Assembly: GCA_000316135.1 (NCBI GenBank)
Contig: JH993832.1
Span: 21,118 to 40,007, forward strand
DNA: 18,890 nt
Source: Trachipleistophora hominis
Taxonomy: Eukaryota; Microsporidia; Pleistophoridae
Reading direction: 5' to 3'
How positions within the stretch are numbered: the first letter of the stretch is position 1; the number at the start of each line of letters is the position of its first letter. The position numbers were made by a program, and so were the translations under genes. Positions 1-17,575 of the stretch are shown here, one piece after another. The notes below the pieces were generated by a model. That model saw nothing but the letters and a program-made list of their open reading frames with translations. It was not told the DNA's origin and did no database searches.

Positions 1-26
1 TTTCGTTTTTTTATTAGAAAGATCAG

Positions 27-120
27 TTAATTAATTCTTCACACTATTTACATACCTAAACGACCTCTTCTGGTGCGCTGAGCGCTGACCATGGTCACAA
101 CAATCTTTGGTTTATAAAAC
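27..120 (-). repeat. Dispersed short repeat, copy A
   Basis: Read on the minus strand, this copy aligns along its length with 4914-5019, 13668-13760 and 17483-17575. The order of shared blocks is an AACCAAAG-like 5' block, CCATGGTC, a GCGC hairpin core, CCAGAAGAGG, a GTTTAGGT/GTGT block, and a GAAGAATTAATTAA tail. The core holds the hairpin GCGC-TGA-GCGC (75-85) and the perfect palindrome TGACCATGGTCA (86-97). The left end is near the window edge, so flanking duplications cannot be judged. Strand is given relative to the copies at 13668 and 17483. Confidence 0.75.
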
Positions 121-2587
121 CATATTCTTCGATGATTAACATTTTTGTTGGCTGCGTGTTGTAGATAATTCTATTCATCCCAACTAACAATTTCTAATCA
201 AATTATGAATAATTAATTAAAGTTTCTATCCAGAAGTAGACACAATGCTTTTGTTGAACTGTTTATTGAAACCCATTACATATCGTTTTACATATGTAAT
301 GTCATCTGACGATTAGAATACACACAATGCCCTTGCCTTTCAAATCTTCTTTAAAATCGTACGAATCACTAAACAAATAGAAATTGTTAATAATGTGCAC
401 CGTGCGTAAGGTATTCCACGAATTTTCGCTTCTGATGCTGAATGTATATTTATAATATTTTTGTAATATTATTGTTGGGCCGATACATGGTGCAACATAA
501 GGAAAGGTTTCATTTATTTAAATGATTAAATAGAGGAGGTTGATTCTGGGCCAACAACTATAGTTTTGTAAATTAGAAAACAGTTACGTTCCGGTAAAAT
601 TGATCCGCTAATATCATTTATTTTTGCTATCTATTCAAATAACATCCATTGATGTTTTCATAACGGCGTAAATATTCGCTTGATGTAGTCATCTCGACGG
701 TAGTTTCTACGATGCAGCATTCTAATCGGAGAGGTATACTTATTGCTGTATTATAAATAGGACTAGATTATTTTTAAAATTAAAAGTTATTTAATTTATT
801 TCTATTTTACGAATGCAGATAGCAAAGCAGCACAAAATACTATGCCACAAGCTCACTATCACTGCGTTGCTTTTTGCAATATCAGTTGGTATCGAATCAC
901 AAGACCACACAATATAATGAATAAATAATGTTGATAATGACGAATTTAATAAGAAGAGATAATAAAAAAGGGTTTTGTTAAACCTCGGTTCGTTTGAAAA
1001 CGGTACCATCCTTTAATATCAGTGTTAAATAAATCATCTTCTCAAGCAACATTTGTGATAACAAAACACTTAGAGAGTTTTGCTATACAAAAGTTGGAAA
1101 ATTGTGGTATAGCAGTTTGTATCTAACTATCTAAGTTATTTCTTATCCAAAAAATTATATAAACCCGATTTTACATGTAGAAAACGCTTCCGGACATGAA
1201 AATTAGTAGAGTTCTAAATTATGTTATTGATAATTAAATTTTTACCATTTTAGATAGATCAAGTTTTTTGGAAGTGGTTGTTTTACCAGATACGATGTAA
1301 CTTTCAAAATCTTCTATTTAATATCTCATAATGCTGCGAACAAAATAATTATTCATAAAAATAGATCATACTAATTGCTTCACGTAAATTCGTGATATAC
1401 AGCTGCATGCAACAGTAGATGTTGAAATGGTATTGCATTGGTTGTTTTACAATACAGCATGTAAAATGTTAATACTATAAACTTTAAATCACCGTGATCG
1501 TTCGTTTGTTATCGCTTTTTTTGTTCATTATTACCATTCAATTGCTAATCAAATATTCTATATTTTGTTGTATGATTCTTGCATTTTATGGTTAATTAAT
1601 TCAAACAATGCTATTTCAACCATTTGATAGCTACATACAATGAAATGTCAGAGTTTGCAGTATATTTTGAACAGAATAACTATATTAACAATTGATGATG
1701 TATATAAACAAAAAACTATGTTACGCTATTTTATCTTCTTCTCTACATGTGACATTCTCAGCACAGAAATAACCATATCTTGCGCATCGAAAGAGAGATA
1801 GTGTTTATTTTAAATATAATTTTCACATATAGTCCATAGAATCTTAATATTATTTATTTAAATATGCTGAAAACGATTATAAATTTGTTAAAGCACTTTT
1901 GATATTTTTTCTCGTAAAAATTAATTTACGCTAAATAACAATCCACAATTGAATGTACATGTTTCAGCTTTGAATTGATGCGTGAACAATATACAGTATT
2001 ATATTTAACATATCAACTAATCACGTCAAAAACTCCCAATGATTAAATATGACATTTAATGATATTTATGATTTAATATAAAATGATGTTTATTAAAAAT
2101 ATTAAATGAAACCAAAAGTTAGTATATCTATTTATTGCTATACACGGAAAAATACGCAAAATGAATTTCAATGTAAAATAGGAATCGTAAATAAATCTAG
2201 ATCTCCAAAAACAATATCTCTTGCTTATTGTTTGCTACAATAATAAAGTTATATATTAGACGGTCATAATCGCTGTTCTAGAGTATTATATACGGGCATT
2301 ATATGATTATATAGCTATCGCTCAGGAAAAAATAAATATTGATAGGAAAAACATGGGGTCAAGGCAGATCGTTTTGATGGAAGCCACGCAATTTATATCT
2401 AATAGCTGTATCGAATCCACAGATATTTTTATTATATCGTTTGAACATGACAAATTAAAAATAAAAGCGAGATTTTCGTGGTATTGATTTTAGATTTATG
2501 TGACATTATCCTCTTTCTAACAGTTCTGAAAAAGTAGATTTCAAACGCGGTAGATTAGTTATTTTGTCTAATTAATTACCGAAATTA

Positions 2588-2619
2588 TGATTAAATCACA
2601 AGTGAATGTGATTTAATCA
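2588..2619. repeat. Perfect 13-bp inverted repeat (hairpin)
   Basis: TGATTAAATCACA (2588-2600) is followed after a 6-base loop by its exact reverse complement (2607-2619). No gene adjoins it. A 13-bp perfect stem with a short loop stands out even in AT-rich DNA. It could be a cruciform-forming sequence, the end of a vanished element or a structured transcript; nothing here decides between these. Confidence 0.6.
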
Positions 2620-3471
2620 AATCATCTCGAAATATTGTAAACAAACAGAGCGCTCGTTTGGCTATAGAAAGTAAATTTGCCTATTGACACAGCCACCTTG
2701 TCAACATTATAAAACATTTTTATACACCATTGTAGACTGCAAATAAGAATAATCTCTCATAGCTTTTTAATGATTGTCTATTTATGGAATTATGACTACA
2801 ACATACATGATCTGTTTTACGAAATTTACTTGACTCACAAGCCATGGTTTTATAAATAGTCACGAAATGGGAGTTATTATTGATAATATTAAATGCTGCA
2901 ATTCTTTGTTATGGTTCATATCCAAAATGTATTATCCTAAATAAACTCACACCTATATTTGCGTATATTTAACGAACAAAGCGTACTTTTGGCGTTCACT
3001 TGAGCACATTAATGAATCGAATAAATTTTGTATAAGATATGAAGGCAATACTTTCCATGTAATTAAAAATTTCTTCTTCCGTCCAAATGAATTTAATATT
3101 TACATAATGAGCCATTAACATTTTTTATCATTTAATAAATATTTATTGTCTATTAATTTTTCGATAACAGTGTTTTATATCAGACATTTTGACATTTATG
3201 TGAAAAATGATTTTGACCATAAAAGGTAAATTTAAATTAAATATTTTTGGTTGCTCGTAGATTCGAATTAAATAAAAAGTGCAATTAACGAATAATTCTT
3301 GACGTATTTTCCTGGGTATCTGAAAATTGTATTTTAACATGCACCTTTATTAAAGTGGCTATCTGTGATCAATTTCCGTCTTTTTTATTTTTGTAATTTA
3401 TAATTCATTAATAGGATCTATTTATTTAATTCGGCTCTAATCTGTGCAACTTGAAATTTCGTGTAAATAAT

Positions 3472-4344
3472 ATGAAATGGGAAAAAACTAGAGAACAGAA
3501 GGATGAATATATTGTTGAGTCACCGGTCGGAGCAATTCTATCCACCGATGGGAGGAGGTTGAGGGCTTCCCGGGAGAATATGTACGTAGGTTTGTTCACA
3601 AGAAGTGGTAAAAATGAACTGGAACACTTGGATTTAATCGCCATGGCATCATTAAGGGGACTTCAAAGAGAAAAGGATATGTCACTCCTTAATAATATTA
3701 AAAAGGAGAATAATAAATATATAAGAGAAAAATCAAATAACAGGGAAAGAATGAGGAAAAAACCTACAGAATTAAGCGACTCCTCAGAGATATCGGAAAA
3801 TTTCGAGGTTAGAAAACCTAAATCAAAATATAGTACTGTAGAAACGTCGCATCGCAAGGTCAAGGTCAACCTACATGCTGAGGATGAAAATGCTGGGAAG
3901 GATAAGACGGCTCTGGATTACCTATTGGAACAAGCAGAAATTGAGTCGCAAAAGATGGCAGAGATAGAACGAATAGAACAATTTAGACGTGATAGGGAAC
4001 AAGCGATCAGGATGGCGAGAATGAGCCGCAGAGAAAGTGAAGATGTAGGACACGATGAAATTGATTACTTATACGATGGATATCAGATCCCGGATGACAT
4101 TTTCAAGGTAGAATACGAAAATGATAATAAAATGTATTACTGCCCGAAGAAAAACTGTGGGAAAAATTTTCCATCCCTCAGCCGAGTAAAAAGGCATTAC
4201 ATCGTACATACAGGAAAGAAACCATACAAGTGTTTAAACCCCGATTGTAAGAAAAGTTTTTCAAGAAAAGATAATATGTTGCAGCACTATCGGAATCATT
4301 GCACGATGTCAAGAAGAAAGCGTTTCAAGGAGTACGAGCCGTGA
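3472..4344 (+). CDS. C2H2 zinc-finger protein, two fingers at the C-terminus
   Basis: A 290-residue protein, probably a nuclear DNA-binding factor. Two consecutive fingers of the form CX4CX12HX3H lie at about residues 224-246 and 254-276, joined by the linker TGKKPYK, close to the classical TGEKPY linker. The second finger carries FSRKDNMLQH, a helix start typical of fungal C2H2 regulators. Before the fingers there is a lysine/arginine/glutamate-rich stretch (about 65-120) and a long charged predicted helix (about 147-188) that could dimerise. The tail after the fingers is basic (SRRKRFK). The frame is open back to a TTG at 3451, but the first ATG is at 3472 and is used here. No CCC motif precedes that ATG; another ATG at 3580 does have CCCGGG just before it, so a shorter form starting at residue 37 is possible. 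Target genes and orthologue are not recognisable. Confidence 0.88.
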   Translation: MKWEKTREQKDEYIVESPVGAILSTDGRRLRASRENMYVGLFTRSGKNELEHLDLIAMASLRGLQREKDMSLLNNIKKENNKYIREKSNNRERMRKKPTELSDSSEISENFEVRKPKSKYSTVETSHRKVKVNLHAEDENAGKDKTALDYLLEQAEIESQKMAEIERIEQFRRDREQAIRMARMSRRESEDVGHDEIDYLYDGYQIPDDIFKVEYENDNKMYYCPKKNCGKNFPSLSRVKRHYIVHTGKKPYKCLNPDCKKSFSRKDNMLQHYRNHCTMSRRKRFKEYEP

Positions 4345-4530
4345 TGGAGTGTGTTATACCATGTATAAGACTTAAGCTCTTCTAATTTTATGCGTGTATA
4401 TACACTTAACGTTAATATAGTTAGCCATGACACACATATAGAGCAGTATTTTTAACGAATAAACAATATTGATGACTCATGACTCGTCTAGTGCGTATTT
4501 TGTAACCAATTAATTAGTTTAGAATATTAA

Positions 4531-4719
4531 TTGAATCTTTCTGTGGTAGAAAAATATCCGGATACGATTCGTTTGAGCGCAAAATTTGTTTTTACCAATG
4601 CTAGGTTTAGTATTAATCAGGTGACAAAGGCAGAATTTATAACGTATTTACCTAGTATCAGGCACTTTGTACAGTTTAAAAACGTGCACATAGACTTTCC
4701 GAACAACGGTGGAAATTAA
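4531..4719 (+). pseudogene. Possible coding fragment, unknown (weak hAT-transposase-like pattern)
   Basis: An open stretch of 62 codons lies between in-frame stops, with no ATG at its start (first codon TTG directly after a TAA). The translation is less AT-biased than the surroundings and contains a run of the kind RFSINQ...AEFITYLPSI, loosely like the PFS-V-x-F-x-L-P segment near the N-terminus of hAT transposases. There is no DDE catalytic residue, zinc finger or other confirming motif. It may be chance. If real, it is a short remnant, not a functional gene. Confidence 0.15.
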
Positions 4720-4900
4720 TTTATTTCTAGCCATTTTAGAGGAAAAAAGCTCAAAATTATTAATTAAATTTAATTTAAATAAATTATTTGATTCGCACAG
4801 ATTTAAATGAATTATTATCTAATAAACTGTTAAGTTAATTAAAAAACACGGAACGTTCTGCAGGTGAGGTGAAACGAGCAATAAACAACGCTTAACGCAT

Positions 4901-5032
4901 AGAGATACGCATTGTTTGAAGTATCTTCTAATTAATTCTTCACACTTTCCACACACCTAAACAACCTCTCCTACTGCGCTGAGCGCCGGCCATGGTTTCA
5001 ACGACCGCTGGGTCATGAAAGAGATACGCATT
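4901..5032 (-). mobile_element. SINE-like short element, copy B, flanked by 13-bp direct repeats
   Basis: The element body is 4914-5019 (106 bp), read on the minus strand. It is bounded on both sides by the same 13 bases, AGAGATACGCATT (4901-4913 and 5020-5032), which looks like a target-site duplication. On the minus strand the body opens with a potential hairpin (TTCA-T-GACC pairing with GGTC-GT-TGAA), followed by a GCGCTCAGCGC hairpin, and ends in GAAGAATTAATTAG. It shares these blocks with copies A, D and E. It has no coding capacity, so it would have to be mobilised in trans. No poly-A tail and no clear pol III A or B box are visible. Confidence 0.65.
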
Positions 5033-6155
5033 CTCTCAAAAAACAAAAACGAGAAATAACCACGAATGTTACTTACGGTGTGGCACATTATTCCTATCTA
5101 ATAATAACCTGTGCTAAATTATTAGCTATTCCAGCAACCTTATAGGTCCTCTTACAGCTTGTTATGATTGGTTTGTTTCATTTTAATCTTATTCATTAAT
5201 GAAATACGAACCAATTGTTTGTTGCGAATTATCTCATACATTTTTGAACTAATTAATTGCCATTTAACTTCATGAACCTCTTCTCACATTATAAACACCC
5301 ACTATGTTTAATTAAACAGCGATTTAAAATAGTACTCATTGTATAAAATCATTCAAATATCAAAAAAGCGCAATTACTGGTATCAATTAGCTATTAAAAC
5401 ACATTTTTAACAAACGATAACCAATAATAGCTAGAAAAAGCATGGCCTTTGCTGTACAAAAAGTATGATTACTAATGGCTAGACTCGAAGAATAAAATTT
5501 TATCTTGGAATTACATTGTCGCGTCTCGGAATTACATACACTTACCGTCTATATAAGTAGAAAAACGAGTTTTTACATTAAAATTACTGTATCAAATTTT
5601 ATTTCAGTCTTGACGAATATTAAGGCTGTTGAATGTTATAAAAACATCTTTTAAACAATTTAATGTCCTGTGTTATAATAATAACATACTAGTATCTAAA
5701 TGAACTGATGATACATGATAAAAATACTTGTATCCATCGCTTTATAAATCCAAATGGCAAACGCTTATTCCAATACATCATCCACAACTAAGAAAGACAT
5801 TATATCTTTCAATAATATTTTGGCTATATAAACCTTAAAAACAGGCAAATGTATAATATGTACACGTTGACGTATTTAAGTGAATATAACGACAAAAAGA
5901 ATAGGGACAGCTATATAGATGTACATTTCTTGATTTGCTGCTCTCATTTTACTTTCATCAAGAATTTACGTTTGTAAATAAATTTAAACACAAGCAGTTA
6001 TACTTCCTTAAATATCCCAATAAATTGACATTCTAAAATGAGTCGTTCCTATTTGCTGTATTTTGGTAGTGTAACTCTCACGTAGGCAAAAGGTTCAAGT
6101 TCAAATATATTTTAATAACGATAATCTATTTTTTATGAACGTTCGTTTAATTTAT

Positions 6156-6232
6156 TGTCATACCTCCCACGCATCTAACCAAACTCTACTGGCACGTCAA
6201 ACATCTACCGCTGTCTTTTCAGCCTCTAGTTT
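6156..6232 (-). repeat. Dispersed short repeat, diverged copy C
   Basis: On the minus strand this reads GACGTGCCAGTAGAG, then a TTTGGTTAGATGCGTGG block, then GTATGACAATAAATTAAA. It follows the order of the CGCGCCAGAGGAG, GTTTAGGTGTGTGG and TTAATTAA blocks of the other copies. The 5' hairpin part is poorly preserved. It is more decayed than copies A, B, D and E, so the boundaries are approximate. Confidence 0.5.
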
Positions 6233-6724
6233 GCGATCTGACAATGATCTTTAATTGATGAAAATGTAAGTAAAGACATAATTTAACGATATAATTAGGT
6301 GAATCAGTTGAACAATATGGAAACAATTGTGATAGTGTATCATCATGGTGAAATACAGATTGTCACATGTAAAAATTTCTTATAAATATATCACCACGAG
6401 TTTATTTAGCAAAAACTACACAAACACATGCGATAAAGCATGCGTATACGTCTTGATACAGCAATTTTTTCTCAGAATTAAGTACTTTATAAACAAAACT
6501 GCCATGTTGTAATATGATTAGGCATATATGTGAAGAATCATAGTTAATTTTTATCAATTATTAAAATATTTAATAAACCACTTATACCAGCACAAATAGC
6601 ACAATCCCGTTGGTTAAGATAAGAAAAACGTGCCTATAGAAAAAAATGCAGAATCTTGCTGCGTGTCTGTAGTGTAATAATTAACTATTTGTTTCATTTG
6701 CAGTAATCCAGCATATAACCTACC

Positions 6725-6856
6725 ATGATCATCAAAGAATTAGAATCAGACCAGAAATGATACATACATCAACCCGATAGATAATCTGTCATGATCATCA
6801 AAGAATCAAAATGAGACCAGAAAGGATACATACATTAACTTAACTGATCATCTATC
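6725..6856. repeat. Imperfect 66-bp direct repeat, two units
   Basis: The units begin with ATGATCATCAAAGAAT at 6725 and 6791, an exact period of 66 bases. Both units continue with GAGACCAGAAA- or CAGACCAGAAA-like and GATACATACAT blocks. A third, truncated start (ATCATCTATCATGAAGC) follows near 6846. The repeat marks the left edge of the compositionally different 6.7-7.2 kb tract. It could be a minisatellite or part of an old element. Confidence 0.7.
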
Positions 6857-6950
6857 ATGAAGCAATAAAGCCATAAATAGACAAGACTAAAACTCTAAAA
6901 GCGAAGCTAAAACTTAAACACAGGCGAGCAGCGCAGTGAAGAGTTCACAA

Positions 6951-7181
6951 ATGATTACACCAACGAACAAACAAACATGGCATAACAAGATATAGAATAA
7001 CTAGACCAAATAGGTTAGTTATCCAAGGGCAGGTTCTACCCAAAGAGATTGGTATAACAAACAATTAAGTGGGACCCGATAAAACGGTTCTATTAGAAAA
7101 GAGTCAACTACCATGATAAAGTCGGTTACTGCGTCCTTTTTATCAGGCATGCTCACTGCCCAGGATCACTACTCATTATTT
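6951..7181 (+). pseudogene. Possible decayed coding sequence of unknown origin
   Basis: The frame from the ATG at 6951 reads protein-like (for example TNKQTWHNK, then YPRAGSTQRDWYNKQLSGTR, then a 33-codon stretch ending at TAA 7182). It is interrupted by TAG at 6993, 7002 and 7011 and by TAA at 7080. Three of the stops could derive from TGG tryptophan codons by a single G-to-A change. The tract is richer in A and C than its surroundings. No family is recognisable, and a non-coding explanation is possible. Confidence 0.2.
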
Positions 7182-8591
7182 TAATACAACGTAATAAAAT
7201 CCTCATCTTAAGTGTATTGCCTGATCAAGCGAAGTTTACCATATGATAATTCACCAAAAGAGTAATCATCTGTTAATTATATAAATTAACCTCATTATAA
7301 ACGTTTTACACTTGTAATCCGCATCTAAGCGCAGAAACTGTTTTATTGACGCAATGTCTACCAGAGAATATAATAGGACCTTAAATACATATTTTGAACG
7401 ATTCTATAATCACATCTTTTTTCTAAGAACCAATTTACGTGTCACAGTAAATTCACAGCTTTTCTCTATAAAGATACCTTAAACTATACGTGAATTATCA
7501 TCAACATCCATTTATTTTTCCTTTTGTACTGTCTGCAAGTCCCAAATTACTCAACCCACTGCGATCAACTCACCTATCATGTCCTATCTTGATGGTAGGA
7601 CAAGAGGGAAAAATTAAAAGGCACTACTCCCAAACCGTGCGAAGATGTTCCAATTCTCCAGTTTATGTTCAGATTATCTAGTTTCAGACTAGAACGACCA
7701 TGAAAACAATCCATAAATGGATGTACGTGTCGTTGTGCATAGTAATCATTATAACGTCCGTTAATGATTACAATCCGCACGGTAATCAAGAACAAGTTCT
7801 CATAGAACCACCGTATTTGTATAATCAATACGTGTAGTAAAGTAATGTAGATGACAACTAGGAAAGATAAAAATACGCGAATTTCACTTTTCCTACTTCT
7901 ACACTGTATAGGTTTATTACAAAACTACTTTTACGTTGTTTATACGGCTGTTTTATATCTACTGGTCAGTCAAAAACCCGTTTACGTACTTTAATACTAA
8001 GACAACAGCTCAGTAATTGTAATTATAGCAATTTTAGAAAATAAATTTAATTACAGACCGTTTTACAGAACGTACCAGTCCATAATTCATTTACTACGTG
8101 AATTGATGAATAACCTACACTGTCATGTATTTCAACAAAACATTTCGTGTTTAATTACAGTAGCGCGTCTTACCGCCCAGACACGCATAGCATGTCCGAA
8201 AATTCCCATATTAAGACGCTGACCATGAGAATGTGTTGATTTCCGGTTACCATAAGCGGGCACAGTCCATGAATGCCAGGACAAGCCATTCATCATTCTT
8301 AAATAAGTGATAAGCAGTACACCCGTGCTATAAACATTATTCTACGTAATTCTATTGTTATAACTATTAATACTCTCTGATATTTTACACCTACCTCCAT
8401 ACATTGACATGTTTCCGTTCTAAAAACGTGTCTGCTCATCTCTTACGCTCTTTAATTATCACCATCATAGACATCGTCCAATTATTTGCCACTCGTCCTT
8501 TTATTCTGCTATGACCAGCCATGGCCACAGCTTTTAGTCTATAGATCCGCACGTTAACACGTGGTAGTATCAAGCGCTGGTAAATCATGAT

Positions 8592-8681
8592 CAGACCCGC
8601 TGTACAGTTTCTAAAATAAGGCGCATGTCCAAGTTTAGTATAGAACGAGCACCAAATATTTCGGCTATCATCACACGTCAT
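8592..8681 (-). pseudogene. Possible eroded zinc-knuckle (gag-like) fragment
   Basis: On the minus strand, part of an 86-codon open stretch (8436-8696, first codon GTG) reads WCSFYTKLGHAPYFRNC. This resembles a CX2CX4HX4C retroviral-type zinc knuckle in which the second cysteine is tyrosine (TAT instead of TGT) and the last spacing is six residues instead of four. The tail of the open stretch is basic (IKERKR). No reverse transcriptase, protease or integrase motif could be found nearby, so a link to a Ty3/gypsy-type gag is only a suggestion. Confidence 0.15.
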
Positions 8682-8831
8682 TTTTGAATGAAACACGCGC
8701 GGAGTATTTTATCAGTCCAAATAGAAATAAAGAAGACGCACGCGTTCTTACGGCAATATCATCCGATGTAAACATTAATATCAAGTAAAATACGCAGTGT
8801 TTTTATTATACGTGTTATTCGGTGTACTTCC

Positions 8832-8985
8832 CATTGCTAAGAAGTAATCACTGGTTTAGAGGAGTAATCACTGGTTTAGAGAAGTAATCACCGGTTTAGT
8901 CTGCACAGCTGTCCATCTGTAAATGCCACATTGCTAAGAAGTAATCACCGGTTTAGTCTGCACAGCTGTCCATCTCTAAATGCCA
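8832..8985. repeat. Compound tandem repeat upstream of the DCAF5-like gene
   Basis: A 20-base unit (GAAGTAATCACYGGTTTAGA) occurs three times in tandem (8841-8860, 8861-8880, 8881-8900) and again at 8938-8957. The last two units belong to a 57-base repeat that also includes CTGCACAGCTGTCCATCT and AAATGCCA. The short lead-in CATTGCTAA precedes the unit at 8832 and again before 8938. The array ends about 170 bases before the start codon of the WD40 gene, so it may be a promoter-proximal cis element or simply a minisatellite. Confidence 0.85.
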
Positions 8986-9153
8986 TAGTCTTGCCTTACA
9001 CGCTCGGCAAGAACCAATTTGGTGATCACCACGTCCTAAATCAGCAAATTTGGCATGACCAGCCTTTCTGGGCAAAACCATGTTTGATACGCCACGGCAG
9101 GAAAAACAAATGCATATCACGTCTAGACTTGATATTTGGTAGAAAAAAGGATA

Positions 9154-9157
9154 CCCC
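9154..9157 (+). promoter_or_regulatory. CCC-type start-proximal motif of the DCAF5-like gene
   Basis: CCCC lies immediately before the ATG at 9158. In microsporidia, short C runs close to the start codon have been described as a translation- or transcription-start signal. An in-frame TAG at 9140 shows that the protein cannot start further upstream. Confidence 0.6.
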
Positions 9158-10513
9158 ATGTCATGTAGTAGGACAAACGACTTCAGATACGTGCAGGCTT
9201 TGACCGGCCATACAGGATGTGTGAACGCGCTTGCAATAAGCAGGAACATTGGCAGATACTTGGCCACCGGCTCTGATGATAAACGCATTATTCTTCACGA
9301 TCTGTTCTCCGCCAATTTCAACCACCAGCCTGCCGTCCTCCACGGCCACGAAAATAACGTGTTCTCCATAAAATTTGGAAAGCAGGACAACCACGTGTAT
9401 TCGTGCGGGTTGGACGGGTTTTCGTTCGTATACGACCTCAACAAGTCAAACAGGCCGTTTTACCGCGGGGGAAACGCCTCGGAGCAGGCGTACAAAATTG
9501 ACGTGAAGAAGGACAACGACAACCTGTTCGCCGTGGCGAGCACGCAGTCGCTCGAGCTGTTCGATCTGCGAATACGCGCGCCGTACAACGAGCTGGCATG
9601 TCGCCAGCAGCTCTCGACCGTTAATTACCACCCGATCGAGCAGAAAATACTGATCGCGAGCATGAAGGGAAAGCTGGATCTGCTGGACGAGCGCAAGCTT
9701 GACAGGCCGTACTTGAAGTACAACACCGCGCTGCGCTACTATCCCTCGTTCTTCCAGCAGCGTGCATCCGATGCGGTCACGCTGTTTGAGGAATTTAGTT
9801 TTTCTGGAAATGAGACGATCAGATTAGAACTGCCAATTTCAAATGCTACGTTTAATTACAACGGCGAGCTCATCCTCGCATCCCCCCTGTTCTTCTTCCC
9901 CACGCTGTACAGAACGTCAGACGCCGACCCTCAGGTTGTTTTCTACGCGCGCGAGTTAAGACACGTGTGGACGATGAAGAATTTTAACTTTGGCGGGCCG
10001 TACGACAAAATGATCCTGGCGGGGAGCGACAAGAAATTAGGATTCTTCTGGCACCTGCCAGACACCTTCTGCACAGGATTTGAGCATGCAAAACAAAGAC
10101 AAGATAGAAAGCAGCACGCGTTCACCCGGCAGGGACGGTGTGTTAATCAGCCGGCCGCCAACGTAACCCTTGCAAGGGATGTTTTGCTGGCGCAGCCGTT
10201 CAACGAGGCCGTGTCAGACACCGTCGACTTCTTCTCCAATTCTTCGTACGCAGGCATTCAATTCAGGGATGCTAAGAGATCCTTTGAGGTGGCACAGACG
10301 TACGGCAAGCTGCTCAACGCCAAGGGCATGATCAACAGCGTAGTTATGCACAGTAAGATGCCGCTCATCTTTACGGCCGGCGTAGAGAACATCGTCCACG
10401 TCTATTCAAATTTAGAGCTGGGCCACATCACCAAGAGCTACAACCGAAATTCCGAGACTCTGAACATTTTTGAGCAGCTGCTGCAGCAGAACAACCTCAA
10501 CGACCTTTTCTGA
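9158..10513 (+). CDS. DCAF5/DCAF8-like WD40 repeat protein
   Basis: A 451-residue WD40 protein resembling DDB1-CUL4-associated factors 5 and 8, which present substrates to CUL4-DDB1 ubiquitin ligases. Repeat 1 shows GHTGCVNAL (17-25) and TGSDDKRIILHDL (37-49). Repeat 2 has GHENNVFSIKF (63-73). Later repeats carry FDLR (136-139) and LLDERK (175-180), at the places where DCAF5 has WDxR boxes. A late repeat reads NFNFGGPYDKMILAGSDKKLGFFWHLP (275-301, here cited as a landmark), close in pattern to the DCAF5 segment with SGSDDFNLYMWRIP. About 200 residues of human-type N- and C-terminal extensions are absent or shortened. The tryptophan of the WDxR DDB1-contact box is replaced, so DDB1 binding is uncertain. 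The gene is noticeably GC-rich at third positions, unlike the zinc-finger and RWD genes. The family call is good; the exact DCAF number is inference. Confidence 0.87.
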   Translation: MSCSRTNDFRYVQALTGHTGCVNALAISRNIGRYLATGSDDKRIILHDLFSANFNHQPAVLHGHENNVFSIKFGKQDNHVYSCGLDGFSFVYDLNKSNRPFYRGGNASEQAYKIDVKKDNDNLFAVASTQSLELFDLRIRAPYNELACRQQLSTVNYHPIEQKILIASMKGKLDLLDERKLDRPYLKYNTALRYYPSFFQQRASDAVTLFEEFSFSGNETIRLELPISNATFNYNGELILASPLFFFPTLYRTSDADPQVVFYARELRHVWTMKNFNFGGPYDKMILAGSDKKLGFFWHLPDTFCTGFEHAKQRQDRKQHAFTRQGRCVNQPAANVTLARDVLLAQPFNEAVSDTVDFFSNSSYAGIQFRDAKRSFEVAQTYGKLLNAKGMINSVVMHSKMPLIFTAGVENIVHVYSNLELGHITKSYNRNSETLNIFEQLLQQNNLNDLF

Positions 10514-10547
10514 TGGCATTCTGCGGTAAGACACGATTAAATGTAAA

Positions 10548-10771
10548 TTACAAACAAGCGTTTGAAATGGTTCCTTCTGTATTGGCAGGTATAATTTCTG
10601 CGGGTGTTCGTATCATTTCTTCCTCAGTACCAATATTTCCTTTTATTTTTACTACGTTGATTGCCTTGACACTGCCATCATCATCATTTTGTGCCTTTAA
10701 GAATGGCCTAACTAATTTTGTACCACGAACTCTTCTGATCAGCAAACGTTCGTTTTATTGGACCTACACAT
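10548..10771 (-). pseudogene. Possible small minus-strand gene, spliced or frameshifted; unknown product
   Basis: The minus strand is open for about 68 codons ending in TAA at 10548. The product is charged and protein-like (contains RRVRGTKLVRPFLKAQNDDD and KIKGNIGTEEE) but has no ATG in its frame until late. An ATG at 10771-10769, preceded by CGCTGAGA (eL30 has CCCTGAGA before its ATG), is out of frame with it. Removing 29 bases that begin GT and end CAG (about 10763-10735) would join ATG-TGT-AG to the open frame and give a 64-residue product. That GT is followed by CCAAT, a poor match to the usual microsporidian donor GTAAGT. So it may be a frameshifted relic or chance. The plus-strand frame over the same bases looks like a shadow. 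Confidence 0.25.
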
Positions 10772-11415
10772 TCTCAGCGTAGCTGTTTCGGTTCTAAAAT
10801 TTTACTCCTTCGTTGTTCTATCAAATAACACGCGTATAAAATACGGTTTTATCACTTTGAAGGTGTTTTACCTTAAAAACGTTTCTTGTACACTCTACGC
10901 ATACCTTCTCAGTTTATCTTGTCCACGTTTTTACGGCAGATTCGTTGTTTATCATCATCCCACAGAATAGAAAAACCGGGGTACACGATGTGACCTGTAA
11001 TAAGGTAAGTAATACAGAAGGACCTTCTTTATTAATCTAAATAAATTTATGATTGGAAAGAGTTTTTATACTCAGTTAAAGTGTTTACGCTCTTTTATAT
11101 GAACGCTGGTCTTATGAATAAGGATATACAGCGATAAGAAATGTTATTAAGTGATACGTGATAGAGCTGTTAGACAGTTTAAAAGGGACGAGAATTGATA
11201 GAATAGGATATAAACGTTTAATTAAAGCACTCTTCAGTTGTTATTGTTAACTCGTATGGTGTATTTATCATAGATTACGTATTATTTTGTTCTTAGCTGG
11301 TAATGATTGAAGAGTTTACGATTATTAACAAGAAATAACGGAGAGGATGGTTAAATGGTATGAACGCACCATTCTAAATTTCTTTACGACAATAATATCG
11401 GAGGAATACCCCGTG

Positions 11416-11508
11416 CTCTGAAGATACAAGTACAATAAAAACGCCCTTAGAGCTAAAAGATCGGTCCGTACTTCTCTGAAGATACAGGTAAAATAAAAAC
11501 GCCCTTAG
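11416..11508. repeat. 35-base direct repeat, two copies
   Basis: CTCTGAAGATACARGTAMAA followed by TAAAAACGCCCTTAG occurs at 11416-11450 and 11474-11508, with two mismatches and a period of 58 bases. It lies about 400 bases upstream of eL30. A weaker relative with AAAACGTTCTTA follows near 11550. Function is unknown; a local duplication is the simplest explanation. Confidence 0.8.
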
Positions 11509-11889
11509 CAAATGTAGTAATGGTAAATAAACATTTTTTAGTAAAAATAAATGAAAACGTTCTTAACTAAAAACATCCTTCTAGAAGGAGACGTGTTCAT
11601 TGTACCTCCTCTGATACTTAAAATTAATCACATTGGATCATCGTACAGAATGTTTCACAAGATTTGCATCTCATACAGCAATAAAAACGGCATCAACGCT
11701 TGTAGAACGTTGTAACATATTAAGATTGTTTAATTCGTAAGTTATCACGTTTTGGAAAAAGTTGCGGTTCAGGAGGATGTTCTACAAAAATTTACACTCG
11801 GCCTGCAAATAACAATTCATCAATTCTTCTTAATGTCCCTGCCACGTGCCCACCAAATATTCATCGCTCAGACTGCGCCAATAAATTTC

Positions 11890-11904
11890 AAATTTTTTGT
11901 ACCC
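11890..11904 (+). promoter_or_regulatory. AAATTT and CCC motifs upstream of eL30
   Basis: AAATTT (11890-11895, with another at 11883-11888) and CCC (11902-11904) lie within 30 bases of the ATG at 11910. This pairing matches the arrangement described for microsporidian ribosomal protein genes: a C-rich start-proximal motif plus an AAATTT-like signal. Confidence 0.6.
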
Positions 11905-11909
11905 TGAGA

Positions 11910-12236
11910 ATGGCAAAGAAGAACACGCGAGAAGTCGCATTTGAGGACAAACTGCCCCTTGCAATACAAACAGGCGACGTTTTATTCGGCTTTAAAGAGT
12001 GCATCAAGTCGCTCATGAACCAGAGATGCAAAATGGTCGTTGTTTCTGCTAATCTACCGCCGCTCAAGCGCAGGATGCTTGAATACTACGCTTATCTGAA
12101 CAACAACGTTCCACTTTACTTCTTCAACGGCACTAACAACGATCTTGCACGGTCGTGCGATAAGTTCTACAGGATTGGTGTTCTTTCTATTATTGATGAT
12201 GGTGAGGCTGATTTAATACCGGCAGAGGCTGCTTAA
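11910..12236 (+). CDS. RPL30: 60S ribosomal protein eL30 (L30e)
   Basis: A 108-residue L30e-family protein of the large cytosolic ribosomal subunit, where eL30 binds 25S/28S rRNA near the subunit interface. The order of family landmarks is complete: an N-terminal lysine patch (AKKNTR), the helix with GDVLFGFKECIKSLM matching the GKYVLGYKQTLKMI region, the strand KMVVVSANLPPLKRRMLEYYAYL matching [22 protein letters not shown] (landmarks only), then FFNGTNNDLARSCDKFYRIGVLSIID matching [25 protein letters not shown], and a GEADLI end. Length is normal for the family. Microsporidian ribosomal protein genes sometimes carry a short intron at the start; none is needed here. A CCC motif sits 5 bases before the ATG. 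It converges on the CDT2-like gene, 314 bases downstream. Confidence 0.95.
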   Translation: MAKKNTREVAFEDKLPLAIQTGDVLFGFKECIKSLMNQRCKMVVVSANLPPLKRRMLEYYAYLNNNVPLYFFNGTNNDLARSCDKFYRIGVLSIIDDGEADLIPAEAA

Positions 12237-12550
12237 AGAGGAAGAGTAAAGCTTTTTTATCATTTTGTTAGTCGTGCTGTTCGTAATTAGAGCGGAACAT
12301 TTCTTGGAAGCAGCGCTTTCTTGTACGTTTTACGTAATTTTATTTAATTTTCTCCTGCCGTTCTGTCAGGGGTATTTGTGAAAGTACGACTTGTCCATCC
12401 TTACAGGCCGTTGATTATGGCCGGTCCTAGCGGATCAGAAGGACGTTTGGTTGAGTAACGTTAACGATCAAACGGGCACTCTAAAAAGATAGAATTGCTG
12501 CTCATTGTGAAGAGCACGCATTTACAGCGTTCATACAGCCCATCGATCGT
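12237..12550. other. Convergent intergenic region between eL30 and the CDT2-like gene
   Basis: Both genes end into this 314-base gap. It contains T-rich stretches shortly after the eL30 stop, and a diverged copy of the dispersed repeat (12404-12470). No hairpin terminator or separate gene was seen. Confidence 0.6.
12404..12470 (+). repeat. Dispersed short repeat, partial copy F
   Basis: AGGCCGTTGATTATGG, CCGGTCCTAGCGGATCAG and AAGGACGTTTGGTTGAGT follow the same order as the AGGCCGGTGGCCATG, AGCCTAGCGGACCAG and AGGAGTAGGTTTGATTAGGT blocks of copy D. The AT-rich 3' tail is not clearly preserved. Its place in a 314-base convergent gap shows that the family also enters tight intergenic spaces. 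Confidence 0.55.
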
Positions 12551-13519
12551 TCATATAATTTGTACCTGTGTCTCCTTAAATACCATTTCATAGATTGTTA
12601 CTCTTCCGTACTCGTCGTACGTTAAGAAATTGTTTCTTCTTATACAGTTGAGCCCGTTAATCGGGTCAATATCGTGTGTACACGCAAGATGCGTGTATTT
12701 CGCATCAAACACGACCACTTTATTGGCAAAACCTGCAAGCACAAGATCTAAATGTGCGCTGTAATCAATTTTTCCGTGTGATACTCCGTACGTACTTCCG
12801 GGCTGTACGTAATTCATGAATGTGCCCGTTTCTGTCAGCCTTAGAACGCCTGAATTGGAGAGTAACAGGTAAATATGACGGTCTTTATGGTAAATACTAT
12901 TGGTTATTGCATTCGCAATGCTGTTCTGTTCTGAAATGTACATCCCCCGCTTGGTGTATCGTAGGTCCCACGTGTTCAGGATAGTACCTGGCGTGGCGGT
13001 CCCATAGATCGTGTACTCCTCTTCCCTGTTCAACTCGAGCGCACTTACCATTTTATGGCCCCGGGGATAAAAGTTCAGCTCTAACACCGGGTCCTTGCTC
13101 CTCACATCCCAGCAAAAAACCTTTCCATCACTACCACCCGTATAAACACGGCCGGCAGCGTGTTTTACACACCGCACAGATTTTGTGTGTCCTCTACGTT
13201 GTGTAAATTCTCCTTTAAATACATCAAACAGGTACACGTTTGAGTCTCCGCTTGCTATGCCTATCAACGAGTTGGTCAACCAGCAAACATCAAATATGGC
13301 AGATGAGCTCACACCAATCTCAGTATTAAGAAATTTACGTTCATCTATGTCTGTATCCATCAGAAATAGATGGCCTGAGTCATCACCAAGTGCTGATATA
13401 ACACATTCTGAAAATGTATCGCAACATAAAAACGAATAGTTGGTTAGTCTCTTAGTAAAGACCGTCAAAGGTTTGTAAATTGATGCTCTGCTGATAGCAG
13501 GCCTTGTGCCTTGTTTCAT
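12551..13519 (-). CDS. CDT2/DTL-like WD40 repeat protein (DCAF2-type)
   Basis: A 322-residue WD40 protein whose best pattern match is CDT2/DTL, the CUL4-DDB1 substrate receptor that targets CDT1 and other PCNA-bound proteins during S phase. AIFDVCW (74-80), IASGDSNVYLFDV (88-100) and GHTKSVRCVKH (110-120) are followed by TGGSDGKVFCWDVR (127-140) and later TILNTWDLRY (179-188). Two intact WDxR boxes, WDVR (137-140) and WDLR (184-187), sit where CDT2 has its two DDB1-contact boxes. The long C-terminal region of animal CDT2, with its PCNA-interacting box, is absent. The frame is open further upstream to a TTG at 13558, but the first ATG is at 13519, preceded by CCCCAACT, so 13519 is the likely start. 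Convergent with eL30. The WD40 call is secure, the CDT2 assignment moderately so. Confidence 0.88.
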   Translation of the reverse strand: MKQGTRPAISRASIYKPLTVFTKRLTNYSFLCCDTFSECVISALGDDSGHLFLMDTDIDERKFLNTEIGVSSSAIFDVCWLTNSLIGIASGDSNVYLFDVFKGEFTQRRGHTKSVRCVKHAAGRVYTGGSDGKVFCWDVRSKDPVLELNFYPRGHKMVSALELNREEEYTIYGTATPGTILNTWDLRYTKRGMYISEQNSIANAITNSIYHKDRHIYLLLSNSGVLRLTETGTFMNYVQPGSTYGVSHGKIDYSAHLDLVLAGFANKVVVFDAKYTHLACTHDIDPINGLNCIRRNNFLTYDEYGRVTIYEMVFKETQVQII

Positions 13520-13523
13520 AGTT

Positions 13524-13527
13524 GGGG
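13524..13527 (-). promoter_or_regulatory. CCC-type start-proximal motif of the CDT2-like gene
   Basis: On the minus strand CCCC lies 4 bases before the ATG at 13519, in the same position class as in the eL30, RWD and DCAF5-like genes. It decides the start against the upstream TTG of the open frame. Confidence 0.6.
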
Positions 13528-13592
13528 AACAAATTATTTGAGAACCTCTTAAAAACAAGGCGCCGTATTAAAATTTTTGAATGAGCACCGTT

Positions 13593-13695
13593 TCGTGTTT
13601 TAACAATAAAGTTCCATGAACTAAAGGCCGGTGGCCATGGTCGGTCTCTCGTGTTTTAACAATAAAGTTCCATGAACTAAAGGCCGGTGGCCATG
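13593..13695 (+). repeat. Exact 47-base tandem duplication at the head of repeat copy D
   Basis: The 47 bases from TCGTGTTTTAAC to GGTGGCCATG occur identically at 13593-13639 and 13649-13695, with 9 bases (GTCGGTCTC) between them. Perfect identity points to a recent event. The unit contains the 5' hairpin part of the dispersed repeat plus upstream flank, so it is either a local duplication or a truncated second insertion. Confidence 0.9.
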
Positions 13696-13760
13696 ATTAG
13701 CCTAGCGGACCAGAGGAGTAGGTTTGATTAGGTAGTGTGTACGAAGAAGATAATTAAACT
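13668..13760 (+). repeat. Dispersed short repeat, copy D
   Basis: Block order: CCATGAACTAAAGGCCGGTG, GCCATGATTAGCCTAGCGG, ACCAGAGGAGTAGGTTTGA, TTAGGTAGTGTGTACGAAG, AAGATAATTAAA. CCATG and CATGG near the 5' end can pair, as can GGCC-GGT-GGCC. The 9-mer AACAATAAA occurs just before the element (13658-13666) and again at 13795-13803, a weak candidate target-site duplication in AT-rich sequence. Confidence 0.75.
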
Positions 13761-13850
13761 ATTTTTTAGTAAAAAACAACAAAATTGTTCGTTCAACAAT
13801 AAATATGCGTTACTAAAGCATTTATTGGTGAACTATTCGCTAAATGTCGT

Positions 13851-13868
13851 TTGATAACGAGTTATCAA
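13851..13868. repeat. Short perfect palindrome
   Basis: TTGATAAC and GTTATCAA (8-bp arms) are separated by GA, about 90 bases after repeat copy D. It could be a binding site or chance. No adjacent gene start gives it a role. Confidence 0.4.
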
Positions 13869-16398
13869 CATTAAGGCCGGTTTTTATAAAAATGTGATTA
13901 AAATGTTCACATTCAAGACAATCTCTTAATTTAAACGCAGTAAATGCTTTAAAATATTTAATAGCACATACAACAATAGTTGAATTACCTTTGTTTCTCT
14001 CTTAAACAAACCATTACCTCGTACTGTGCAAGCAATGTTATTATCTTTAAAATTAAAACGAATATTTCCATGCATTAGATGTAAATAACAATTTATCTTG
14101 CATCAGATATATTTACTAGCATTTTTACTTCTTTTCGGTTAACGCTACTCCATAATCTAACATTTCTTATAATTCAAATAAAATATTTTTATAGTTCGTG
14201 AAGGACAGCGTACGTTCAGAATAATTCTAGGCGCATTAGTCCTTAACACCATTGCTATAACAAATTATAACCTTTTATTTTACATCGAAGCGTAAAATAT
14301 TAATTTTGTATCTTTAGGAACAAATAATTAAATTATGAACTGCTCACTTATCAGTTTTTAACTTTTTCATCTCACAGACATTAAAGATTATACTGTCCAA
14401 GGTTTTTGTTTCTTAATTTTCTATGGTTCATTTATTTGGAGCCTTGCACAGAGCCTGGTTGAATATACACTTATATTCTGTAGAGTATCTGAATAGAGCA
14501 CAGAACGTGTATTACAATAAATAATATTAATTTGCTGAAATATTTATAGAGATACGCTTACTTTTGATCCGTTTAAAAAATGTTTATGTCAGGCAATAAC
14601 CTGAGAAGTATTTTAATCATGATGATACGTGGCTTAGAACGATTGTTTAAATATTTATATTAATTAAATGATTATTTACGTAATACGCTATATATAAAGT
14701 AAATAATAATTCTTTATATTTCAAACCTGAGAGACTTCTGTGTAGGATTTAAAGTTTTGGGTTTCCAACAAGATTTATTAATAAAGTATTACGATGATTC
14801 TATAATATTATGCACAGTCTTTCATCGTTATATAGGCTGTTATTCTATCATTGATCTCTACCAGCCTTGTTTCGAACAAATAAGTTTATTTGATAGGCCA
14901 CATCTTCTTTCCTATTCTGTAGGCTTACTGTTCCAACATAAAGCATTCTTATAGCATTGTGCAGACCAGTAATTGCCCGTAAAAGAGGTTAAAGGTTGTA
15001 AAAATAAGTTTAAACAACAAATAATACGAAACTAACGAATATAAAACCACGTCATAATCATTTAAAGGCTTAGTAAAATAATTTATCATCATACAACTAC
15101 ACAGAAGAGCTCTTAGTACTGATCGAATCTAGTATGATTATTAACTACACGATACCACAGAATATTTCTGCTGTAGAATAATCTTTAACTCAGTTTATGT
15201 ATCGGTAAAGCTTTATCTTTATGAGACATGTACATATCAAAAAATAGTATAATTAAATAAACAGTGTTGTCTAATAAGTTGTGATATGTAATTTTTATTC
15301 CAAATATAGTAACTCAAAAATATCTTACCTGTCGAACATAGTGTAAATTTAAGAGGTTAAAGCGGTTAACATGAATACGAATTGTAATCTAAATATCAAC
15401 ATGTAGAAAAGTTCGATTTGATATTCCTCTACAAACCAGATTTATAAATTAAAATCTTTAGTTTACTTATTATAAATACCAATTCTACCGAAACCACAAA
15501 CGTTCCACAAATAAAATATCTTTTATGGCACAAAATTTATTAAACTGTAATTTTTATATCCATTTTAATGATTAAAAGGTATTTTGATGTTAATGTAGTG
15601 CAGAATTTACGGTCACATGTATAAAAAACAATATTGTATTTTTGGATAGATTAGTACAAGAATTGACCTCAGTATTAATGATCAACAAAACATCCATTTA
15701 TAGCGAGAATGCTATTTTATACTCGTATCAACTATACTACTTATTATAAAGTACCAAAAATTCACATATACTAGATGTACAGCTTTCCTTGCGACCTGAA
15801 ACGAACAATTAAATAAACGCGTTACATTTCAGTACCAACAATAAAAATGAATCTCAAAACCAACGATGTTCTTGTTACCTTGAGAGTTTAGAATTTATTC
15901 GTTTTGTTTTATGTTTCAAGGTTTGATTCGGAACTACCACACATTGTTAGATATATTTTAAAATATTACATAGTTCATGGATGCTAGACCATACAATGTA
16001 TATTTAATCTCTTTATATCATTGTTATACTATTATTTGGTGCTCATTACATCAAGCTTATACGTGTATCACGTTTCAATGTTTGGTATTTGTCCTATACG
16101 CGCTAATTCTTTGAACCAATTATAACAACATCATAAATATGTTACAGACTACGCCAACTGAATCTTAATACACGATTATTTTGGATTATTACGTTAGAGA
16201 TGACCAATGAGTGAGCAACTTGCTGTTGTCGTACATTCTTAAGTTTAAAAAGAACCAATCACAGCTACCGCACATAAAAACACCACAATCACGATTTAGA
16301 TAGACCTATTATCAGTACCATTAGATCTTTAACGTCACAGTATTGTTAGTAATCATATTTCAAAGTTTAAAAAACAATAAAATTCAAGAAGAGCTACG

Positions 16399-16623
16399 AT
16401 GTTTAAAATATTGGTCATAGCTATTTTGGGAATTATCACTTGCCTTGTACAGAATACGGCAAGCAACCCTGATAACCTTACGAAAAGCAACTTATACGGG
16501 TTTATGGATAGTGTCGCACATAAAGTATATTTTGGTCATAGTTTGGAGCGATGTTCGGTCACACCAGGAGAATTCAGCAGTTACAGCCCATATTCACATC
16601 ATGATAAGAACGATCGGTACTAG
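16399..16623 (+). CDS. Small predicted secreted protein, unknown
   Basis: A 74-residue protein starting at ATG 16399 with a classical signal peptide: a basic residue at position 3 (MFK), a hydrophobic core (ILVIAILGIITCLV, residues 4-17) and a likely cleavage after NTAS (about residue 22). The mature part is about 52 residues, polar, with one cysteine and a serine/tyrosine/histidine-rich tail (SSYSPYSHHDKNDRY). No family is recognisable. Small lineage-specific secreted proteins are common in microsporidia, which fits. No CCC motif precedes the ATG, and the body is short, so it could also be the surviving 5' end of a longer gene. The overlapping frame 16445-16636 is treated as a shadow. Confidence 0.5.
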   Translation: MFKILVIAILGIITCLVQNTASNPDNLTKSNLYGFMDSVAHKVYFGHSLERCSVTPGEFSSYSPYSHHDKNDRY

Positions 16624-17482
16624 AAGATGTATGTAATCTAATAAAATTGCTTATAAGTCTTTAATTTTTATTGAATGTGCTTGCAATTTCCCAATTTTCA
16701 TGGAGCTGAATATGTGTATTGAAAATATTCTCTTGCTGTCAATAGTTTATCGGTGATAAGATAGACCGATGTTAAATGATTGACTTTATAAACGAAGTGT
16801 TATCCACTTTTTAAGGATAAAAGGTGATATATACGAGTTGAACGAACCTATTATACACACAATAGATCATGAAAGGTTTTTATTACACATTTGATTGGAA
16901 TAAAGAATTAAAAATGGTGTTTGCGCGTATAATCTCTATCATTATTTTTCAAATATATTAAATAAAGTGTTTCCCTCGTAAAAATAAGACAACTACTCGT
17001 TCTTTAACGAAAAGTGTAATATTCTGTTTAGTTCTGTTAATAAAAGATATTCATCTGTCATTTTATTAGCAATACATGAAGAAAAGCTTTCTCTTGTGCT
17101 AGTTTTCTAACTTTTGTCAAAAAAACAAGCTCAAATAGCGAACTAATAAAGGAAAAGAATAACATTTAATGAAGATAATTGCTGTAAGTGCTATCCACAA
17201 TAAATATTTACAAATAAATAACTCACCACCAGAAAGAGTATATTAAATAGGTGTTGGATGAATATTCAATTATTAATTAAATATGTTTCTTCAAAAAAAA
17301 TAAATAACTCTCAACCTTTCTGGTCAACACGATGATAAATTCAAAACATACAGATAAAGATTTTAATGGTAATTCCAATGAACAGGTAATTACTTAAAAT
17401 AAGAATCGTACTGTTAAAATTAAGTTTAAAACATTTTTGTATAATGGGAAACGAGGTGTAACTCATGTATTATGTCAATGAA

Positions 17483-17575
17483 ACCGTGAACCAAAGGCCG
17501 ACAAGGTCATGGTAGGCGCTAGCGCGCCAGGAGAGTCTGTTTAAAGTGTGTGGTGGTAAGAAGATTTAATTAAAA
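17483..17575 (+). repeat. Dispersed short repeat, copy E
   Basis: Block order: ACCGTGAACCAAAGGCCGAC, AAGGTCATGGTAGGCGCTAG, CGCGCCAGGAGAGTCTGTTT, AAAGTGTGTGGTGGTAAGAA, GATTTAATTAAAA. ACCGTGA can pair with TCATGGT (one G-U pair), and GGCGC-TAGC-GCGCC forms a second hairpin. The 8-mer CAATGAAA occurs at 17476-17483 and 17599-17606, only weak evidence for a target-site duplication. Confidence 0.75.

What the first reader, a model, noticed from the sequence alone, without database searches (positions are those of the whole stretch)
27..17575. New-looking family of about 90-110 bp dispersed elements, at least six copies in 18.9 kb
Copies at 27-120, 4914-5019, 6156-6232 (minus) and 12404-12470, 13668-13760, 17483-17575 (plus) share the same block order: an AACYAAAGGCCG-like head, CCATGGTC, a GCGC-rich core, a CCAGAGGAGG-like block, a GTTTAGGTGTGTGG-like block and a GAAGAATTAATTAA-like tail. 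All lie between genes, in both orientations, with different degrees of decay. None codes for a protein. I know of no named microsporidian repeat with this sequence. A very small SINE-like or MITE-like element, or a dispersed structured RNA, would explain it.
Basis: seen in the sequence. Interest (0 to 1): 0.8.

Follow-up and report, generated by a model that had tools for sequence, protein, structure and literature searches.

The report
SINE-like elements from a LINE tail
The repeats are mobile elements of about 110 bases, an estimated thousand or more in the genome of a microsporidian parasite, that match the tail (3' untranslated region) of a longer retrotransposon and were most likely copied into place by that retrotransposon's enzyme.

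Summary
In detail: all six copies are real, and profiles find three more pieces in the window. They belong to a dispersed family of 105-115 bp, found at 0.25 copies per kb in fetched loci, about 1,400 in the 5.5 Mb held (extrapolated). The genome is almost certainly Trachipleistophora hominis.

The copies are retroposed. They end in an A-run; 63 of 109 copies without LINE sequence upstream have matching target-site duplications, against about 4% of mismatched flanks, while 0 of 9 copies with LINE sequence do. In LINE copies the element starts six bases after the stop codon, so there it is the 3' UTR. Subfamilies share a three-hairpin fold with compensatory changes. No terminal inverted repeats, convincing pol III boxes or Rfam match were found.

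Full-length solo copies start at one base, and in subfamily C they intermix with LINE-linked copies on a weakly resolved tree. So the 3' UTR probably became a discrete RNA repeatedly and was retrotransposed in trans. What makes its 5' end is unknown; an HDV-like fold was tested and not supported. The LINEs were known; I found no report of this element.

The parts
8..115 (-). Subfamily A copy, near full length; the contig reads N beyond window base 1, so its 3' flank cannot be tested
   Evidence: Profile 97.1 bits; flank N seen
4912..5018 (-). Subfamily A copy; 13-bp perfect target-site duplication AGAGATACGCATT at 4901-4913 and 5020-5032 (+ strand)
   Evidence: Profile 96.7 bits; flank alignment score 14
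6131..6231 (-). Decayed copy; duplication unconvincing
   Evidence: Profile 24.0 bits; flank score 9, partly through A-runs
8450..8538 (-).
   Evidence: Profile 30.4 bits; flank score 6
12403..12464 (+). Partial, decayed subfamily C copy; duplication unconvincing
   Evidence: Profile 29.2 bits, positions 10-73; flank score 8 with a gap
13614..13648 (+). First 35 bases of a subfamily C copy, in a tandem duplication (56-base period) with the next copy's 5' end
   Evidence: Profile 29.3 bits; direct repeat D5
13670..13776 (+). Subfamily C copy; possible 12-base duplication with one mismatch at 13655-13666 and 13792-13803, 15 bases beyond the A-run
   Evidence: Profile 84.3 bits; flank score 10
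17225..17298 (+).
   Evidence: Profile 51.3 bits at 17227-17298; genome match; flank score 13
17484..17592 (+). Copy of a minor type (E; B-like); 8-bp perfect duplication CAATGAAA at 17476-17483 and 17599-17606
   Evidence: Profile 65.5 bits; flank score 8

Best explanation
The repeats are short non-autonomous retroelements made of the 3' UTR of a resident non-LTR retrotransposon (LINE). Shown: the unit is dispersed, ends in an A-run, is often flanked by target-site duplications, starts at one base (CCATGAAC) when full length, and in subfamily C is the sequence that follows the stop codon of a LINE reading frame. Supported by comparison: the RNA folds into three hairpins that subfamilies keep through compensatory changes. 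Inferred: the hairpins and A-tail are what the LINE reverse transcriptase recognises, so an RNA carrying only the 3' UTR is copied into nicked DNA by target-primed reverse transcription, as SINE RNA is. Inferred: in subfamily C the short RNA arose repeatedly, with the same 5' end, from different LINE variants. Unknown: whether the 5' end comes from transcription start, RNA processing or self-cleavage, and which LINE moved subfamilies A and B. The copies sampled look old.
For: Target-site duplications: 63 of 109 non-LINE-linked copies score 9 or more against 3.4-4.2% of mismatched pairs, z 28.6 over all 118; first set of 58 of 82 copies, z 18.2. Internal control: 0 of 9 LINE-linked copies. Duplications end 0-2 bases before element base 1 in 53 of 63. 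LINE frame, stop codon, six bases, element: six copies (one of them holds only 68 bases upstream) and 16 of 20 further fetched ends. RVT_1 upstream in L022 and L025. Fold: helices paired in 92, 89 and 79% of cells. Solo and LINE-linked C copies intermix: 15 changes on the tree, at least 5 forced by strong branches.
Against: 46 of 109 copies show no clear duplication. No LINE partner seen for A and B: their upstream flanks share only short matches. No AP-endonuclease domain in the held genome. The label on the C tree is somewhat clustered (37 and 21 of 500 shuffles as low) and the tree is poorly resolved. Single-copy folding energies are ordinary (z -2.0 to 0.0). No transcript evidence; no relative's genome to show empty sites.
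Confidence: 0.88

Rival explanations
1. The short copies are ordinary 5'-truncated LINE insertions in which reverse transcription stops at the ORF/3' UTR boundary; no separate short RNA exists.
For: Truncated copies with variable 5' ends are common: 16 of 40 D matches start at positions 9-59, and of 43 incidental copies only 17 start at position 5 or less (decay also shortens local matches). Solo and LINE-linked C copies intermix.
Against: A sharp end at one base in 24 of 40 D matches (start 4 or less) and a duplication ending within 2 bases of it in 53 of 63 is not expected from random stops. Of 42 C matches, 28 are solo, 12 LINE-linked and 2 second copies at LINE ends (my reading of flanks). 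The end lies 5' of all three hairpins, so a structure block is a poor reason for it. A and B have no LINE-linked copy in hand.
Confidence: 0.2
2. A true SINE lineage with its own internal promoter, whose 3' end was later taken over by the LINE as its 3' UTR.
For: A and B behave as stand-alone lineages.
Against: No convincing pol III boxes: B-box pattern in 3 of 128 copies (0 of 128 shuffled), A-box-like pattern in 13 of 128 (41 shuffled). No Rfam match over the elements. Solo C copies are not one lineage.
Confidence: 0.15
3. A self-cleaving (HDV-like or unrecognised) ribozyme at the 5' end releases the 3' UTR from longer RNA.
For: Fixed 5' end; pairing order P1-P2-P3-P1'-P4-P2' can be drawn; such ribozymes release retroelement RNAs in trypanosomatids (PMC4035085, abstract seen).
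Against: P1 has no two-sided change; P2 pairs in only 63.5% of cells. No Rfam match. No C was seen where the catalytic C is expected (recalled motif).
Confidence: 0.08
4. A MITE (miniature DNA transposon).
For: Short, dispersed, non-coding, in both orientations.
Against: No terminal inverted repeats seen in the alignments; A-tail; duplications of variable length, 9-24, median 14; adjoining LINE frame.
Confidence: 0.01

Closest known systems
LINE/SINE pairs sharing a 3' tail (stringent type; eel and zebrafish examples recalled; PMC4176376 and PMC5135761 seen in the search listing with starts of abstracts)
   Same: A short element and a LINE share a structured 3' end, which the LINE enzyme is thought to recognise.
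   Different: In those pairs, as recalled, the SINE adds a tRNA-, 5S- or 7SL-derived head; here the whole short element matches the LINE 3' UTR.
RIME/ingi and SIDER elements of trypanosomatids (PMC4035085, abstract and outline seen), and R2-derived SIDEs of flies (recalled)
   Same: Short non-autonomous elements derived from a LINE rather than from a small RNA gene.
   Different: Those keep the LINE 5' end with the Pr77 or ribozyme region (PMC4035085 abstract for Pr77; SIDEs recalled). Here the HDV-like fold was tested and not supported, and the LINE 5' end was not available for comparison.
Non-LTR retrotransposons of T. hominis (PMC3486916: sections 7, 8 and 21 read, other passages seen; PMC4202319: passages seen)
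   Same: Same LINE type: an RT fragment in L025 is identical to a GenBank T. hominis non-LTR RT protein. PMC4202319 Table 1 lists nine LINE families for T. hominis.
   Different: The parts read describe reading frames and frameshifts, not the 3' UTR or solo copies. The word search for 'sine' found none in either main text; supplementary tables were not available.

Membership tests
SINE | Short, dispersed, non-coding, multi-copy | tested here: met
   105-115 bp; 82 distinct copies in the first fetched loci; 0.25 per kb in flanks
SINE | A-rich 3' tail and target-site duplications | tested here: met
   63 of 109 copies against about 4% of mismatched pairs
SINE | Internal pol III promoter or tRNA/5S/7SL-derived head (strict definition) | tested here: not met
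   B-box 3 of 128, A-box-like 13 of 128 against 0 and 41 shuffled; no Rfam match over elements in the window or in 20 loci. Hence filed as SINE-like, not as a strict SINE
LINE-mobilised element with shared 3' end | 3' end the same as that of a resident LINE | tested here: met
   Element follows the LINE stop codon in six copies and in 16 of 20 fetched ends; one of the other four reads N, three gave no profile match on that strand. Shown for C; one D pair shares upstream sequence; no LINE seen for A and B
LINE-mobilised element with shared 3' end | Enzyme of that LINE copies the element | not testable with these tools
   Needs a biochemical assay
MITE | Terminal inverted repeats and fixed-length target duplication | tested here: not met
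   None seen; duplications 9-24 bases
HDV-like ribozyme element | Nested double pseudoknot with conserved P1 and P2 | tested here: not met
   P1 84.9% paired, no two-sided change; P2 63.5% paired; no Rfam match
HDV-like ribozyme element | Self-cleavage at the 5' end | not testable with these tools
   Needs in vitro transcription
Dispersed structured RNA gene | Conserved secondary structure | tested here: met
   Three helices; fraction paired, two-sided cells and covariation score beat all 500 shuffles and all six slides, two other measures do not beat the shuffles (48 of 120 listed copies, chosen by me)
Dispersed structured RNA gene | Copies kept by selection in place | tested here: inconclusive
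   Mean divergence from subfamily consensus 12-15% in A-D, truncated and decayed copies; no relative's genome to test conservation in place

The most novel reading that the evidence does not exclude
Each LINE lineage carries its own parasite: the 3' UTR is a self-sufficient RNA module whose 5' end is set again and again, in different LINE variants, by a signal at the ORF/3' UTR junction (a downstream start site, a processing site, or an unrecognised self-cleaving RNA). This would be a class of short retroelement that needs neither a captured promoter RNA nor the LINE 5' end.
Probability: 0.35. Interest if true: 0.72.

Novelty: new variant of a known kind. Interest (0 to 1): 0.55.

Why it matters
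Most SINEs, as I recall the literature, join a promoter-bearing small RNA to a LINE tail. Here the tail alone seems enough, and in subfamily C it appears to have been launched many times from the LINE rather than from one founder. If so, it is a very small natural definition of what a LINE reverse transcriptase needs: three hairpins and an A-tail. The elements also make up a small part (about 2-3% if the estimate holds) of a genome noted for long intergenic DNA (PMC3486916, section 7 read). I found no SINE or SINE-like element reported for a microsporidian in the listings (20 of 43 papers shown; 15 of 16; 15 of 15), nor by word search for 'sine' in six main texts. Supplementary tables and Repbase were not searched.

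Tried and rejected
MITE: no terminal inverted repeats; rejected.

HDV-like ribozyme: the pairing order looked right by eye, but pair counting did not support P1 and P2 and Rfam found nothing. Kept as a minor rival.

All-against-all covariation (G-test with average-product correction, 124 copies): dominated by subfamily differences and uninformative; replaced by named-helix counts.

Pol III boxes: not convincing. AP-endonuclease families PF14529 and PF03372: no match in the held genome, so the LINE clade and nicking enzyme stay unassigned. Of the nine RVT_1 matches, L021 and L024 look like LTR (Ty3/gypsy-type) elements by my reading of their frames and were set aside. Target-site motif: only an A-rich start, partly an artefact of aligning to the A-tail. 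Relatives of this genome are not held, so empty sites could not be compared.
Full report
What was checked first. Twenty shuffled windows and the reversed window gave no match above 12 bits; the weakest piece scores 24.

Which organism. The 451-aa WD40 protein of the window is 89% identical to Vavraia culicis VCUG_00841, and the database entry identical to the window's protein has a longest contig of 311,951 bp. That is the length of scaffold #00035, the largest of Trachipleistophora hominis, in the Figure 1 legend of PMC3486916. A 108-aa reverse transcriptase fragment in L025 is identical to a protein named 'RNA-directed DNA polymerase, Non LTR Retrotransposon, partial [Trachipleistophora hominis]'. 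The contig that holds the window here is 289,032 bp, and the genome held is 5.51 Mb in 119 contigs against 8.5 Mb published, so I take it for a trimmed copy; that is inference.

Copy number. One window copy finds 14 places. Queries with copies of subfamilies B, A, C and D give 40 (61 candidates, 40 scored), 28, 42 (144 candidates, 40 scored) and 40 (43 candidates, 40 scored) matches; by the tool's statement these are lower bounds. In 176 kb of fetched loci, leaving out the 55 copies taken as the reason for fetching, 43 further copies were found, 0.25 per kb, or about 1,400 in 5.5 Mb. Eight of the 43 lie in loci fetched for reverse transcriptase matches, which raises the figure somewhat.

Anatomy. 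The consensus is 105-115 bp, starts CCATGAACCAA and ends in an A-run. Four main subfamilies (A-D: 13, 33, 57 and 23 of 128 aligned copies) and a minor type E (2) differ mostly in the second half. Three helices recur: helix 1 (GGYC..GRCC), helix 2 (GGCGC..GCGCC in A and B, GGTCC..GGACC in C, GGTGC..GCACC in D) and a long helix 3 closing the 3' half. On 48 of 120 listed copies, chosen by me, they are paired in 92, 89 and 79% of cells. Fraction paired, two-sided cells and covariation score exceed all 500 shuffles and all six slid versions; the number of pairs with two-sided change and the number of pair types do not exceed the shuffles. Part of this is expected because the structure was drawn from these sequences, as the tool warns. 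Four more pairs below helix 1 add little covariation. Folding of seven single copies gives the three hairpins in five (A, B, C, D and E types) and not in two window copies, with ordinary energies (z -2.0 to 0.0).

How it moves. Flanks were tested by aligning the sequence before each copy with that after its A-run, against all mismatched pairs. In the first set, 58 of 82 copies (near full length, usable flanks; 24 dropped), own pairs average 8.67 against 5.55, z 18.2. In the larger set, those 58 plus all 60 fetched C and D copies, 63 of 109 copies without LINE sequence upstream score 9 or more against 3.4-4.2% of mismatched pairs, while 0 of 9 LINE-linked copies do; z over all is 28.6. The matched stretches, which can include part of the A-tail, are 9-24 bases, median 14, and in 53 of 63 end 0-2 bases before element base 1. 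In the window, the copies at 4912-5018 and 17225-17298 have perfect 13-base duplications and that at 17484-17592 an 8-base one; 13670-13776 has a 12-base match with one mismatch that lies 15 bases beyond the A-run; 6131, 8450 and 12403 are unconvincing. Truncated copies can have duplications too (5 of 10). This is the signature of target-primed reverse transcription.

The LINE link. The copies without duplications at the 5' boundary share the same upstream sequence: the end of a reading frame with a zinc-knuckle-like motif (CPFCGKEKRETAWHLLWEC; only weak Pfam matches), a stop codon, six bases, then the element. A search with its last 106 residues gave 45 matches. Of 20 ends fetched, 16 have the element next to the frame; one reads N there, and three gave no profile match on that strand although the alignment shows partial similarity. 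Reverse transcriptase motifs lie upstream in L022 and L025. So subfamily C includes the LINE's 3' UTR. Among D copies one pair shares upstream sequence, with a stop codon next to the element in L145, which suggests a second LINE. A and B copies share only short matches upstream. LINE ends in L097, L099, L105 and C107 are followed directly by a second, 5'-truncated copy, which fits template jumping.

One founder or many. On a tree of 56 distinct C copies (31 solo, 25 LINE-linked; 108 columns, poorly resolved) the label needs 15 changes, against 18.5 when shuffled; 37 and 21 of 500 shuffles are as low, so there is some clustering, but strong branches alone force at least 5. Solo C copies are therefore not one lineage. 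Of the 42 C matches, 28 are solo, 12 LINE-linked and 2 are second copies at LINE ends (my reading). Not all copies are full length: 24 of 40 D matches start at position 4 or less and 16 at 9-59, and 17 of 43 incidental copies start at 5 or less. The pattern is a sharp peak at base 1 plus the usual truncation tail, which is what a discrete RNA with imperfect reverse transcription would give.

What sets the 5' end. Not known. Pol III boxes are not convincing, no Rfam family matches the elements, and the HDV-like pseudoknot I first found attractive fails pair counting. RNA processing, a start site near the LINE stop codon, or an unrecognised ribozyme remain open.

Relation to what is known. PMC3486916 (sections 7, 8 and 21 read) reports expanded, frameshifted non-LTR elements in T. 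hominis and used RepeatModeler; a word search found no 'sine'. PMC4202319 (passages) lists nine LINE families for T. hominis and none for V. culicis, and no 'sine'. Listings showed no report of a microsporidian SINE. The element works like a SINE, but under the strict definition (pol III promoter or small-RNA head) it is not one; it is a LINE-derived short element of the broad kind of RIME or SIDEs, here reduced to the 3' UTR.

Limits. One genome, no relatives, no transcripts, no intact LINE seen, no endonuclease domain found. The mobilising enzyme is inferred from the shared 3' end, and for subfamilies A and B no LINE partner is in hand.

Noticed in passing
window 16399-16623 (+): A 74-codon open frame beginning MFKILVIAILGIITCLVQNTAS, which looks like a signal peptide; a possible small secreted protein in a long intergenic stretch (read by eye).
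   Followed up: no
window 8832-8985: Tandem and near-tandem repeats of a GAAGTAATCACYGGTTTAG unit, just upstream of the WD40 gene at 9158.
   Followed up: no
window 6715-6846: Two 66-base tandem copies, 80% identical; part of the second is complementary to 2774-2816.
   Followed up: no
window 3472-4344, 9158-10513, 11910-12236, 12551-13519, 18200-18685: Genes: C2H2 zinc finger, WD40, ribosomal L7Ae/L30e type, WD40, and a possible RWD protein just under its cut-off.
   Followed up: partly
L097, L099, L105 and C107:9523-9716 (L025): LINE 3' ends followed at once by a second, 5'-truncated element copy; a possible trace of template jumping.
   Followed up: partly
L019, C87:169986-170128: Two 5'-truncated A-type copies in tandem with the same 14 bases (one mismatch) after each: tandem duplication or a second insertion at the first copy's tail.
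   Followed up: no
L021 (C108) and L024 (C16): Reverse transcriptase matches that look like broken LTR (Ty3/gypsy-type) retrotransposons rather than LINEs (my reading).
   Followed up: no
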